Positions 20,469-26,076 of a stretch of DNA of 64,000 nucleotides are shown in pieces; positions within the stretch are counted from its first letter, which is position 1, and the number at the start of each line of letters is the position of its first letter. The notes beneath the pieces were generated by a model. The model made no database searches. It saw only the letters and a list, made by a program, of their open reading frames with translations, and was not told the DNA's origin. The position numbers and the translations under genes were made by a program. Source of the stretch: Hexactinellida sp. DTS-2022. Taxonomy: Eukaryota > Porifera > Hexactinellida. Where the stretch lies: contig JAPNXP010000002.1 in the NCBI GenBank assembly GCA_028753945.1, positions 14,136,001-14,200,000 of the forward strand, in the 5' to 3' direction.

Positions 20469-21005
20469 ATGATTGCGTCTCAGATTAGACTCGGTTTCAG
20501 AGGGAAGATGGCTGGTATGAAGTTCAGCATTAAGGTAGGGGAAACGCTCCCAAGTAAGGAACTATCGGAAGATTCTCCTGCAAACAAAGTAAATGTTAAA
20601 GAACTGTTTACTGGCAAGAAGGGAATATTATTCGCTGTCCCGGGAGCATATACGCCAACTTGCTCAAAGATACATTTGCCAGGCTTTGTTGAAGACTCGG
20701 GAAAGTGGAAAGTTAAGGGATTCGACCCGATCGTATGTGTATCGGTTAACGACGTGTTTGTGATGTCAGCATGGGGACAGGAGCATCGGGTTGGTGGGAA
20801 GGTGCGCATGCTCTCAGACACTGACGCGCTCTTTACAAAGGCTTTAGGCCTGGATTTTGATGCAACTGGAGTACTGGGAGGCACCCGCTCCAAGCGCTAT
20901 TCAATGGTAGTAGAAGATGGCGTAATCACCAGCCTCAACGTCGAGTCAGATCCTGGGAAGGCTACCGTCAGTTCCTCTCAGGCCATGCTGGAGTCTGGGC
21001 CGTAG
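20469..21005 (+). CDS. PRDX5: Peroxiredoxin-5 (atypical, resolving cysteine missing)
   Basis: 178 residues, one exon. Reduces H2O2, alkyl hydroperoxides and peroxynitrite. The family core is clear: NKVNVKELFTGKKGILFAVP, GAYTPTCSKIHLPGF with peroxidatic Cys65, VSVNDVFVMSAWG, and KRYSMVVEDGVITSLNVE. The human enzyme forms an intramolecular disulfide with a Cys near the C-terminus (in GLTCSLA); here that stretch reads KATVSSSQA without Cys. The only other Cys is 90 (IVCVSVND), at the position of the second Cys of plant type II peroxiredoxins. The enzyme is thus 1-Cys or plant-like. Residues 1-13 may be a weak mitochondrial leader, with Met14 or Met17 as alternative cytosolic starts. Confidence 0.9.
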   Translation: MIASQIRLGFRGKMAGMKFSIKVGETLPSKELSEDSPANKVNVKELFTGKKGILFAVPGAYTPTCSKIHLPGFVEDSGKWKVKGFDPIVCVSVNDVFVMSAWGQEHRVGGKVRMLSDTDALFTKALGLDFDATGVLGGTRSKRYSMVVEDGVITSLNVESDPGKATVSSSQAMLESGP

Positions 21006-21829: not shown

Positions 21830-23476
21830 ATGCTAGCAACAGCTTGTCTATTTGCTCTTTCGCTACTCTTGCAATGCAGCAGCTGTTCCGGGTGTTCCAG
21901 CTCCTTAATCACGATTACTCAGCTGGTGCCACCGGGTTCTTCTTCCTTACACAAGCCGCCCTCTCTCTTCAACATGACCCTGCCCACCTACTCCCTCACG
22001 CTAACAGGGATCTCTCTCTCTTGCGAGACGCCCGCGGGCTGCGGCTCTCTCGCCTCCATCACTATCTCTCACGCAGACCAGCAGCTCACCTTGCGGCGAG
22101 ATCTCCTACAGCTCTATGTATCGCACAACTGGACCTATGAAGCCAGCTTCAAGCTATACCTGGGCCCGGCCTCGTCGCGTTACCTCGCTCTATCGATACA
22201 CTTCGATTCTGTGTCCCCTGTGTCCCCTGTGACTGTTAGCTCCACTCTCTACGGGTGCGAGGCTGACAGGGAGGCTGTCCCAACTCGACAGATACTGCAG
22301 TACGACCTCATACCAGCGCCCTCAACTCCAGATCCCGAGTACACTGGCTTGGTTAATAATAGGCTAGTTAGTGGCGGCGTGGGAATTCTGACTGACCAAA
22401 AGACTGAAACTATAATGACTTGGCACCTAGCAGAGGAGAAGGAAGTATCCCTATTGTTCCGTTTGGATAAGAACTACAGTTTGACTTCTGTCAACATTCT
22501 CTCGCCTAACCATTCTTCTTTTGAGCTGACACGAGTTAGAGCTGAGCTCACAGACTGTGAGTTTACACTACAGCCGTCTCTGTTGTTGGAAAGTTGCGCA
22601 GGAAGCTACTTCCTATTAACTGTAAAGTCTAAACATTCTTCTTTCTCGATCAGTGAAGTGCAGCTGTTGACAGAGCAGGGACAGCTTTCTGGGAAGAAAT
22701 ACCCGATAAGCATTACGAGCTCAAATGACAGTGCGGTAGTGTTAGTATTTATAGTCTCTTTCGTTACTTTCCTTCTCACCTCTCTCCTCTGTATCATCCT
22801 CGCGGCATGCGCCTACGCCTGCTATCGTAGCCGCAGGGGATACCAACGTTGGTCGTTCCGTTCTTTAAACTTGCAGAGACGGAAAGGGGATTATGAAACC
22901 ATGAAGATGAGCAGTAGATCCTCCGACCCTGCGCAGCCCACACCTGAGAAAGTTGACCACGATTACTGCACACTAAAGATTGCAGGAGAACTGGAAGCCT
23001 CTCTCTACGTAGATATGTCCAGCAGTGTGATCCCCATGCCTGCTGACACGCCCTCCTCCCCGCCCCCTAAACCTCCCCCTCCCAAAGCTGTCCGCGCAGA
23101 GCGCAACTACATGTCCATGCGGATACGGGCTGGCTCCTCTGCTGGGTCGGGCCCCGGGGGATTCCTGGCTCGCCTCAAGCACTGGGGCTCGCGGCCACAG
23201 GGCGCACAGCTGGCGGAGGGGGGAGAAGTCGACACAGAAAGTGCGGGCGATAATGCTGGAACAACAAAATCTCTAAGCAGGAGGGGAGGGTTCAAAGTGA
23301 AGTCCGGCAGTTCTCACACCTCTCGGCCTCCCCCTTCCCCCTCTCGGCCTCCCCCTCCCCCCGCTCGGGCCTCCAGCCAGCCCCCAGCGCCAGCTGATGA
23401 CGCTCCTGTCTGCGAGAAAGAAGCAACTGAAGTCTCTGGAGAGAAGGAAGCTGCCGAACTCAAAAACTCAAAGTAA
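21830..23476 (+). CDS. Kinase-less discoidin-domain-receptor-like membrane protein
   Basis: 548 residues, one exon. Signal peptide 1-20; a shortened discoidin-like region (about 30-143) ending TLYGC, as discoidin domains of DDR receptors do; a second region (about 145-290) matching the DDR DS-like domain (PEYTGLVNNRLVSGGVGILT, MTWHL, EVSLLFRLDK). Five N-glycosylation sequons (48, 100, 215, 227, 299). One transmembrane helix at about 302-331. The 217-residue cytoplasmic tail has no kinase domain but holds Y355ETM, Y379CTL, Y393VDM and Y427MSM. Three of these are YxxM, the docking motif of PI3-kinase p85 SH2 domains. Proline runs (PPPKPPPPK; PPPSPSRPPPPP) are potential SH3 ligands. DDRs are collagen-receptor tyrosine kinases; this one could only signal through partners. 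Confidence 0.65.
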   Translation: MLATACLFALSLLLQCSSCSGCSSSLITITQLVPPGSSSLHKPPSLFNMTLPTYSLTLTGISLSCETPAGCGSLASITISHADQQLTLRRDLLQLYVSHNWTYEASFKLYLGPASSRYLALSIHFDSVSPVSPVTVSSTLYGCEADREAVPTRQILQYDLIPAPSTPDPEYTGLVNNRLVSGGVGILTDQKTETIMTWHLAEEKEVSLLFRLDKNYSLTSVNILSPNHSSFELTRVRAELTDCEFTLQPSLLLESCAGSYFLLTVKSKHSSFSISEVQLLTEQGQLSGKKYPISITSSNDSAVVLVFIVSFVTFLLTSLLCIILAACAYACYRSRRGYQRWSFRSLNLQRRKGDYETMKMSSRSSDPAQPTPEKVDHDYCTLKIAGELEASLYVDMSSSVIPMPADTPSSPPPKPPPPKAVRAERNYMSMRIRAGSSAGSGPGGFLARLKHWGSRPQGAQLAEGGEVDTESAGDNAGTTKSLSRRGGFKVKSGSSHTSRPPPSPSRPPPPPARASSQPPAPADDAPVCEKEATEVSGEKEAAELKNSK

Positions 23477-24080: not shown

Positions 24081-26076
24081 ATGCAGAGAATATTCACAAG
24101 TTGCACAACCAGGTCGCTTATTGCGAGGAGTTACAGCACTAACCAGGTTCTGTTTGGAGATCAAGGGTTGGTAGGAAATCTACTGAAACTCCCAAAGTCC
24201 CAACTCAAACCTTTCCTCTCTTCCCTCCCACCAGAATACACCAAGTTCCTAGACCAGTGCAGGGAGAGCCACCTACTATATACGGATAAGATGCAACAGC
24301 TGTTGCAGTCTGTCAAGCAGGAAACGGAGAATCACAAACGCTTTCTAATCACAGGTGATACAAGTTGTTATAAAATCATATTTAATTGTAATCAATGTCA
24401 TCCGTTGCTCAATAAGTTCATTCTCTTGGTTACAATCTACCATTGAGTAACAATAATAATTGACACTAACAGATCTTATAACTTCTGGACTTAGCATGCC
24501 TGGATTATACATATGGCCCTTTATATCTGAAAACTATCCAGATAATTAAGCATTAGTTACTGGAGACTTCTTATACACTGATTTAACTCATCAACTACCA
24601 TTATTTGCACTTCAATGCACTCAAAACCCAATTTATTATCTTAATTCACAAATCTTAATTCGATATTCATTCATTCACAGTTCACTTGCTTTCTACATTA
24701 ATTCATATTCAATTCTGTATGGGCACCTTTGGACTTTCACGGTATTTTATTCCAATATCAACCATTTGAATATCCAACTAGCCTATTGGCTTGTATTAGA
24801 GAGCTCTGTCCGGTAAATTTGTATCTGGCGATACAACTTCAACAATTGTTATTCTCTAGGTCCCAAAGGATCAGGTAAGTCTATGAGTCTGCTGAGTGCT
24901 TTGCTGTACTCTCAACAGAAAGGAATGATACTAATTCACTTCCCAACTCTGTTCTCCTTCACACACAGCAACCACACAGTGGAGCCTTACTCAAGCGATG
25001 AGGGCACTCACTATGAGCAAGACGAGTATGTAGTGAATTGGCTGAAATACTTTCTCGAATTGAATCCTATAATTGGGAACAGTTTAGCTACTGACGCGTG
25101 TCAGTATGGAGATGAACACATGGTTAAATATACAGTGGAGAGAGGCGAGAAGATCGGTGACGTCATAGAACGTGCAATCATCTCTCATTCCTACCCGAGC
25201 AAAGTGTTAGGCTACATTCTAGAACAGATATTGAAAATTCCAAATAGGCCTCCGTTAATGATAGCGATGGATGGACTGAATGCGTTGTTCTGTAGAACGG
25301 ATGTGAGATTGGAGCAGTTCGGGCCCCCACTGATGCCAAGAGAGTTAACTGTAATGCGGACAATCTATGATTTAGTGTTCTCAGAAAAATATACCAAGTT
25401 GTTGACGGGAAATGACTCAATAGTTGCAAGTGTTACTAATCGCGGGGTCCTGGGCGTGAAGGGAAGGCGAAATGAAGATCGATTATTAACTGGCAGAGAG
25501 AAGAGTGAAGATTTCCATAAAGTATTCAGACCGCAAGCCCTGAGGGAATCTCCCACTTTAAATCTTAGCGAGGAAACCACACCTTTCTACTCAGACGGCA
25601 AGAGCTACAGACTGGTTGGCATAGAGGGAGAACTAAGGGAGATGGATAGGCTAGTTGAGTTTGAAGTTGGACAGGGAGAAACAACTAGGAAAATAGGAAT
25701 TGAGAAGTTGCAAACTCAGTGCAAGGATTGGGAGGTTAGCATCGAGGTGCGAGACAAGCTACTGTTTCTGCATTACAAACACCTAGATGAGGTGGCTAAG
25801 GAAAAGGTGTTCCAAGCTAATTATGTTTGGAAAGCAGAGAGACTACTTGGTGAAGAAGGAATGCGAAAAATGTTTGATCCTCCGCAACCTTTCGAAACAA
25901 TTGAGCTACGAAATTGGCAGAAATCCGAAGTTGATGTGGCTATAAGGGAAGCGGTTAAGGATTTGTGGGGGAGACAGGAGTTGAATACGGAAGTAGTCGA
26001 AGAGGTATACCCATTGAGTTCGTATGGGAACCCCAGACTAGTATACAATCTGTGTAGAATGGTGTTTGAACATTAA
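24081..26076 (+). CDS. DAP3: DAP3 / mitochondrial ribosomal protein S29, two exons
   Basis: Exons 24081-24354 and 24860-26076 join in frame to 496 codons plus stop; the 505-bp intron is GT-AG and splits the P-loop. DAP3 is the GTP-binding protein of the small mitoribosomal subunit. Residues 1-20 form a mitochondrial leader (MQRIFTSCTTRSLIARSYST). The P-loop GPKGSGKS is at 92-99, followed by SLLSALLYSQQKGMILIHFP, matching the DAP3 arrangement. Walker B-like LMIAMDGLNALF corresponds to the family's VDGINALW. IVASVTNRGVLG and the C-terminal GNPRLVYNLCRMVFEH also fit. A YAG trinucleotide lies 8-9 bases before the ATG. The region around 285-370 is less conserved than in vertebrates. Confidence 0.85.

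What the first reader, a model, noticed from the sequence alone, without database searches (positions are those of the whole stretch)
21830..23476. DDR-like receptor without a kinase but with three YxxM motifs
The ectodomain ends in a discoidin-type YGC and continues into a DS-like domain (SGGVGILTD, EVSLLFRLDK) known only next to discoidin domains in DDR kinases. The tail lacks any kinase domain but has Y355ETM, Y393VDM and Y427MSM (p85 SH2 docking consensus) plus Y379CTL and two proline runs. This looks like a collagen- or matrix-sensing scaffold that recruits PI3-kinase through a partner kinase, similar in logic to IRS proteins. The frame is open to its stop, so the kinase was lost or never present.
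Basis: partly seen in the sequence, partly recalled or inferred. Interest (0 to 1): 0.75.

Follow-up and report, generated by a model that had tools for sequence, protein, structure and literature searches.

The report
Matrix receptor that lost its kinase
This animal gene encodes a cell-surface protein built partly like a collagen-sensing receptor but without its enzyme, carrying possible phosphate-docking tags instead; it belongs to a family of such receptors in the same genome, most of which lack the enzyme and may rely on enzyme-bearing cousins to switch them on.

Summary
The ORF at 21830-23476 (548 aa) is real: signal-like start, ectodomain, one transmembrane helix, and a 217-residue tail with YETM, YVDM, YMSM, YCTL and two proline runs. 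Alone it matches nothing in Pfam or the PDB, but its genome explains it: I modelled 13 paralogues (11 found by search, 2 by reading). Two, on C14, carry tyrosine-kinase exons; the one tested matches DDR1/DDR2 best (229 bits, next family 167). Twelve of 14 models have no kinase. The window's DS-like domain is homologous (58 bits; best of 2000 shuffles 5.7). Its N-terminal domain is not recognisable as discoidin (339 of 1000 shuffles score as well), unlike the 13 paralogues; the fold prediction failed. Kinase-less tails are enriched in SH2-type motifs: Yxx[MVILF] 48 of 92 tyrosines against 19.7 expected, YxxM 10 against 2.6; ectodomains and five other window proteins are not. A p85 gene is present. 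Best reading: a kinase-less DDR co-receptor phosphorylated in trans and recruiting PI3K. Ligand, phosphorylation and expression are untested. New variant of a known kind.

The parts
21830..23476 (+). Whole coding frame, 548 aa, no intron needed inside it; the 13 paralogues modelled are all split by introns
   Evidence: paralogue introns
21830..21886 (+). Probable signal peptide (residues 1-19)
   Evidence: read from sequence: hydrophobic N-terminus, in-frame stop at the eighth codon upstream; it stayed below the 1.8 hydropathy cut-off used
21887..22258 (+). N-terminal ectodomain, residues 20-143, in the place of the discoidin (DS) domain and ending in the conserved YGC; shorter than in the 12 paralogues measured (125 against 142-196 aa, counted from residue 19)
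   Evidence: position and YGC; homology to paralogue DS domains not shown: -0.2 bits, -1.5 bits with 339 of 1000 shuffles as high
22259..22678 (+). DS-like domain, residues 144-283, with QYDL, YTG, SGGVGILTD, SEVQLL
   Evidence: 58.1 bits against a 12-paralogue profile, best of 2000 shuffles 5.7; 47.4 against a 9-paralogue profile; family profile hits DDR1 ectodomain 4ag4 at 8.8e-11
22730..22822 (+). Transmembrane helix, about residues 301-331, then RSRR
   Evidence: hydropathy peak 2.79 at 306-324
22823..23473 (+). Cytoplasmic tail, 217 aa, no kinase, two proline runs
22892..22903 (+). Y355ETM
22964..22975 (+). Y379CTL
23006..23017 (+). Y393VDM
23108..23119 (+). Y427MSM

Best explanation
The gene is a kinase-less paralogue of the discoidin domain receptors. 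SHOWN: a DS-like domain homologous to that of DDRs, one TM helix, a kinase-free tail rich in SH2-type tyrosine motifs, membership of a family of at least 14 gene models of which two (both on C14) carry tyrosine-kinase exons. INFERRED: the ectodomain binds a matrix or cell-surface ligand and brings the receptor into clusters with kinase-bearing DDRs (or cytoplasmic tyrosine kinases); these phosphorylate its tail in trans; Y355, Y393 and Y427 then dock p85 and start PI3K signalling, while the proline runs hold SH3 or WW proteins. The kinase-bearing genes have no YxxM in the juxtamembrane exons read, so enzyme and PI3K docking appear to be divided between different genes.
For: DS-like homology to paralogues and, through the family profile, to DDR1. 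PF21114 DDR1-2_DS-like is the best Pfam family for 5 of 5 paralogues scanned (of 13), one over the cut-off. Gene B kinase: DDR1/DDR2 best, 229 bits against 167 for the next named family. In the five stretches scanned (window and the C14, C1, C15, C8 loci) tyrosine-kinase exons occur only in B and D, which match by construction because they built the profile; other matches were the window aPKC, also used to build it, and a Ser/Thr-type kinase on C8. Motifs in 12 kinase-less tails: YxxM 10, expected 2.57, P 0.0002; Yxx[MVILF] 48 of 92 Tyr, expected 19.7, 0 of 5000 shuffles; no enrichment in the ectodomains or in five other window proteins. Scan around tail Tyr: strongest are +3 Met (10, expected 2.4), +3 Ile, +3 Val, then -2 Asp, with -4 Glu, -4 Asp and -3 Asp also raised. 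No YxxM in the juxtamembrane exons read of B and D; one YEEM inside the B kinase domain. p85 nSH2, iSH2 and a cSH2-like exon on C11. Precedent: kinase-dead or binding-dead DDR1 'receivers' are phosphorylated in trans by donor DDR1 or DDR2 after collagen (PMC5489314: abstract, passages and Discussion read).
Against: No expression, phosphorylation or binding data. Six of 12 kinase-less tails (A, K, L, J, M, N) have no YxxM, so PI3K docking is not the common function; only this gene and E have three. The N-terminal domain of this gene is not recognisable as discoidin, alone among the 14; the DS-only profile of six paralogues finds nothing in the PDB; the fold prediction is unusable. Acidic context is mixed: a looser test at -1/-2 gave no enrichment (25 against 24.3) and Glu at -2 is depleted (2 against 7.7). 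PMC5489314 found that trans-phosphorylation needs particular TM contacts, not tested here. The window gene hits nothing in Pfam on its own.
Confidence: 0.55

Rival explanations
1. An endocytic or decoy receptor: the DDR-like ectodomain binds matrix, and the Yxx-hydrophobic motifs are AP-2 sorting signals that internalise it, without phosphotyrosine signalling.
For: Yxx[MVILF], the AP-2 consensus (recalled), is the enriched pattern; no kinase; acidic context mixed.
Against: Enrichment at +3 is strongest for Met, Ile, Val; Leu weak (10 against 6.3) and Phe not raised (2 against 1.8); Asp at -2 to -4 and Glu at -4 are raised, as expected of kinase substrates. Several motifs per tail.
Confidence: 0.2
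2. An immunoreceptor-like family: fast-evolving ectodomains recognise self or microbial ligands, and tails act like ITIM, switch or YxxM receptors under Src-family kinases, independent of the DDR kinases.
For: Very divergent ectodomains with long branches, an N-terminal domain unlike all others in this gene, tandem clusters on C8 and C14, different motif sets per member, Ig-like frames (my reading) near the C8 cluster.
Against: DS-like core and intron positions conserved; kinase-bearing genes lie directly beside kinase-less ones on C14.
Confidence: 0.15
3. Not kinase-less in the mRNA: a downstream or neighbouring kinase exon is joined by splicing, or the gene is decaying.
For: No RNA data. For paralogues A and C, which lie just upstream of kinase genes B and D on the same strand, splicing into those kinases cannot be excluded.
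Against: The window gene ends in a stop inside its own tail frame; the next ORF of 80 aa or more starts 604 bp on; no tyrosine-kinase exon found in the window on either strand. Frame intact with conserved domain and non-random tail motifs.
Confidence: 0.05

Closest known systems
Discoidin domain receptors DDR1/DDR2 (kinase-bearing collagen receptors)
   Same: DS-like domain, conserved YGC junction, one TM helix, tyrosine-rich cytoplasmic region with docking motifs
   Different: No kinase; N-terminal domain not recognisable as discoidin; short extracellular stalk; YxxM repeats; collagen binding unknown
Kinase-incompetent DDR1 isoforms and engineered kinase-dead DDR1 'receivers' (PMC5489314, passages and Discussion read)
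   Same: DDR ectodomain without working kinase, tail a substrate for neighbouring kinases
   Different: Those are isoforms or mutants of a kinase gene; here separate genes, 12 of 14 models
ErbB3 and EphB6 (kinase-impaired co-receptors; EphB6 from PMC5489314 Discussion, ErbB3 YxxM sites recalled)
   Same: Work with a kinase-active relative; YxxM docking of p85 in ErbB3
   Different: They keep a kinase-like domain (recalled); here the domain is absent
IRS proteins (recalled)
   Same: Several YxxM for PI3K, depend on another kinase
   Different: IRS are cytosolic with PH and PTB domains; this is a transmembrane receptor without a Pfam match to them

Membership tests
Discoidin domain receptor (DDR) RTK family | DS-like domain next to discoidin | tested here: met
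   58.1 bits to paralogue profile, 47.4 with a smaller one; family profile hits DDR1 4ag4 8.8e-11; below detection by Pfam alone
Discoidin domain receptor (DDR) RTK family | N-terminal discoidin (F5/8 C) domain | tested here: inconclusive
   By sequence not detected: -0.2 bits, -1.5 bits with 339 of 1000 shuffles as high while the 13 paralogues beat all theirs; model pLDDT 35, so the fold itself is untested; only position and YGC agree. Whole-ectodomain family profile gives weak factor V hits (0.029, 0.22)
Discoidin domain receptor (DDR) RTK family | Single transmembrane helix | tested here: met
Discoidin domain receptor (DDR) RTK family | Tyrosine kinase domain | tested here: not met
Discoidin domain receptor (DDR) RTK family | Collagen binding | not testable with these tools
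   needs a binding assay; a fibrillar collagen C-propeptide match exists in the genome
IRS adaptor family | PH and PTB domains | tested here: not met
   no Pfam family up to E 10
Pseudokinase co-receptors (ErbB3, EphB6 type) | Catalytically impaired kinase domain present | tested here: not met
   no kinase-like segment in the tail
PI3K-docking receptors | YxxM above chance in a cytoplasmic tail | tested here: met
   3 against 0.16 expected, P 0.0004
PI3K-docking receptors | Phosphorylation-dependent p85 binding | not testable with these tools
   needs a pull-down; only presence of a p85 gene was checked

The most novel reading that the evidence does not exclude
In this animal the DDR system is split over many genes: about two kinase-bearing DDRs act as shared enzymes for a dozen or more kinase-less DDR co-receptors, each with its own ectodomain and its own set of docking tyrosines, PI3K docking being assigned to members such as this gene and E. 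Receptor specificity and kinase activity would then be separate genes, a combinatorial RTK system not described in the papers that my searches listed.
Probability: 0.4. Interest if true: 0.78.

Novelty: new variant of a known kind. Interest (0 to 1): 0.62.

Why it matters
RTKs are normally one chain with sensor and enzyme. A gene family that keeps the DDR sensor plan and the docking tyrosines but drops the enzyme in most members would suggest that trans-phosphorylation between DDR dimers, shown with mutants in co-expression experiments (PMC5489314), is used as a standing design. It also bears on when DDRs arose: PMC5395295 reports them only in human and fly and PMC8662651 places the family's emergence in Bilateria, while PMC6485061 says sponges and ctenophores have them (passages read only). 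This genome, possibly a sponge's, has a kinase closest to DDR1/DDR2 joined to a DS-like ectodomain.

Tried and rejected
Pfam and PDB with the window protein alone: nothing useful (the one PDB row, E 2.5, is a proline-rich chance match). PF21114 over the genome: one weak exon, in gene K, so paralogue exons were used as queries. PF00754 over the genome gave 9 places, none in the DDR-like loci. DS-only profile against the PDB: nothing. Tree of 13 of the 14 models: only A/B and C/D firmly joined, window gene unplaced. Tail-to-tail alignment: window and E tails look alike (YxxM, proline run, YxxM), but 7 of 300 shuffles score as well and both are proline-rich, so not claimed. Fold of residues 20-297 without alignment: pLDDT 35.2, pTM 0.33, mostly strands; Foldseek 0 matches at E 0.001 or better and no DDR in the 50 rows shown; not used as evidence. 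Taxon: 14 homeodomain places at 1e-5 suggests a sponge (typical counts recalled); a search for silicatein gave 15 places, of which the 12 read look like ordinary cathepsins, one with Ser for the active Cys and a stop in its frame, so the phylum stays open. Two pattern scripts for that check used poor patterns and were replaced. Rejected: chance frame; a kinase nearby; IRS membership.

Literature searches for a kinase-less DDR gene: (open-licence PubMed Central only); none of the listings or passages that I saw describes one. Two more searches served other points and only their listings were seen.

Full report
WHAT IS THERE. The window is C11:14136001-14200000 of a 112.4 Mb, 18-contig genome. 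The frame at 21830-23476 encodes 548 aa with a signal-like start, an ectodomain ending about residue 300, one TM helix and a 217-aa tail. An in-frame TAA lies at the eighth codon upstream of the start. The neighbours on the same strand look like a peroxiredoxin (20469-21005) and a mitochondrial ribosomal DAP3-like gene (24081-26076); these names are recalled from the sequence and were not tested. The gap to the next ORF of 80 aa or more is 604 bp. The tyrosine/serine kinase family search lists only the aPKC-like gene in the window (143 of 391 candidates scored genome-wide), and a kinase profile run over all six frames of the window finds the same one.

THE FAMILY. Pfam and the PDB are silent on the protein alone. 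The own genome gave weak matches on C14 to residues 137-196, and one of those exons as query returned 11 places, this gene among them at 1.3e-4. Reading those regions gave 14 gene models: A to E on C14 (93-113 kb), K on C1, L on C15, F, H, I, J, M, N on C8 (2.798-2.837 Mb), and the window gene W. Eleven of the 13 paralogues were hit by a search (J at E 0.14, H at 0.32 and 0.10), and M and N were found by reading beside them. Against profiles of nine core paralogues, the DS-like domains of H, J, M, N score 44.0, 22.3, 9.3 and 26.8 bits and their DS domains 22.1, 19.7, 20.7 and 11.4, each above all 1000 of its own shuffles, M's DS-like (best shuffle 4.9) and N's DS (10.5) only narrowly. Fourteen is a lower bound. 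In the 13 paralogues a phase-0 intron follows the N-terminal domain and a phase-1 intron follows the GG.G.LTDG.IG region; E and H have one further intron each, and H's last junction is uncertain. W has no intron inside its frame.

DDR IDENTITY. The kinase exons of gene B match DDR1 and DDR2 at up to 229 bits, the next named family at 167. Gene D has a corresponding exon set, which the kinase family search also reports, but was not compared with the PDB. A profile of 10 ectodomains, W included, finds among 177635 PDB sequences DDR1 4ag4 (8.8e-11), DDR1 8pe9 (2.7e-5) and, weakly, factor V discoidin domains (0.029, 0.22). Pfam's PF21114 (DDR1-2 DS-like) is the best family for 5 of 5 paralogues scanned, 3.2e-6 to 0.0021, one of them over the curated cut-off; W gets no hit. 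W against a profile of 9 paralogues without W: 42.3 bits, best of 1000 shuffles 4.3. By domain, with 12 paralogues: DS-like 58.1 bits (best of 2000 shuffles 5.7); its C-terminal part alone 17.0 (best shuffle 8.5); DS domain -0.2 bits. With nine paralogues the DS domain of W scores -1.5 bits and 339 of 1000 shuffles do as well, whereas leave-one-out scores of those nine run from 24.3 to 182.0 bits, each above its shuffles. So the DS-like domain of W is homologous, and a discoidin domain in W is an inference from position and YGC; a replaced or heavily diverged N-terminal domain is equally open.

KINASE LOSS. In the five stretches scanned (window; C14 82-122 kb; C1 718-736 kb; C15 4108-4124 kb; C8 2792-2848 kb) tyrosine-kinase exons occur only in B and D, plus a Ser/Thr-type kinase on C8 and the window aPKC; B, D and aPKC built that profile and match by construction. 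Twelve of 14 models therefore lack a kinase as modelled. A pairs with B and C with D in the tree (100/100 and 99/98), so kinase-less and kinase-bearing genes are close copies twice. A and C lie directly upstream of B and D on the same strand and could in principle share their kinase exons; for W, E, K, L and the C8 genes no such neighbour was found in the sequence scanned.

TAILS. In 12 kinase-less tails there are 92 tyrosines. YxxM occurs 10 times (2.57 expected, P 0.0002 in 5000 shuffles): W 3, E 3, and C, F, H, I one each; A, K, L, J, M, N have none. Without W it is 7 against 2.4, P 0.005. Yxx[MVILF] occurs 48 times against 19.7 expected, with 0 of 5000 shuffles as high. The same test in the 12 ectodomains (49 against 56.3) and in five other window proteins (15 against 22.7) shows no enrichment. 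Scanning every residue at -4 to +5 around tail tyrosines, the strongest signals are Met, Ile and Val at +3, then Asp at -2, with Glu and Asp at -4 and Asp at -3 also raised; Leu and Phe at +3 are hardly raised, and Glu at -2 is depleted. A cruder acidic test found nothing. This looks like kinase substrates and SH2 sites more than AP-2 signals, without excluding the latter. Juxtamembrane exons read for B and D have no YxxM; the B kinase domain has one YEEM.

PARTNERS. A p85 gene on C11 has an nSH2 exon (104 bits to p85alpha), an iSH2 match exactly at the Pfam cut-off (31.5 bits) and a cSH2-like exon recognised by reading. A fibrillar collagen C-propeptide match is at C11:13528389.

MECHANISM. 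PMC5489314 (abstract, passages, Discussion) showed that signalling-defective DDR1 is phosphorylated in trans by functional DDR1 or DDR2 after collagen, needing the donor's kinase but not the receiver's, and depending on the TM domain. The family here has the parts for the same arrangement with separate genes. That step, p85 binding and the ligand are inferred.

LIMITS. No expression data; no orthologues outside this genome (the other collections, by their descriptions viral, metagenome and prokaryote, were not searched); no usable fold; organism unnamed. Few homeodomain places (14 at 1e-5) fit a sponge, but no clear silicatein was found.

Noticed in passing
G000:C10:1378857-1415855 and G000:C16:5493032-5512085: Dense tandem clusters of kinase-domain matches (PF07714), mostly in single long open frames, pointing to lineage-specific kinase expansions.
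   Followed up: no
G000:C8:2808287-2816125: Ig-like frames by my reading (for example 2812078-2812677, 2815499-2816125) lie among the kinase-less DDR-like genes.
   Followed up: no
G000:C8:2841661-2843385: Near-identical partial copy of gene I exon 3 with no exons 1 and 2 seen among frames of 50 aa or more; a truncated duplicate or an assembly effect.
   Followed up: partly
G000:C14:100867-103365: Long tandem array of a short unit, open in more than one frame, between kinase-less gene C and kinase gene D.
   Followed up: no
G000:C15:4038274-4042373: Receptor tyrosine kinase with a cysteine-rich, scavenger-receptor-like ectodomain by my reading, about 70 kb from DDR-like gene L.
   Followed up: no
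G000:C14:93102-95709 (gene E): Kinase-less paralogue with YTEM, YMEM, YVSM and a threefold YxxVTPP repeat, the closest tail logic to the window gene.
   Followed up: partly
window 21887-22258: The window gene is the only one of 14 whose N-terminal domain cannot be recognised as the family's discoidin domain; it may have been replaced.
   Followed up: partly
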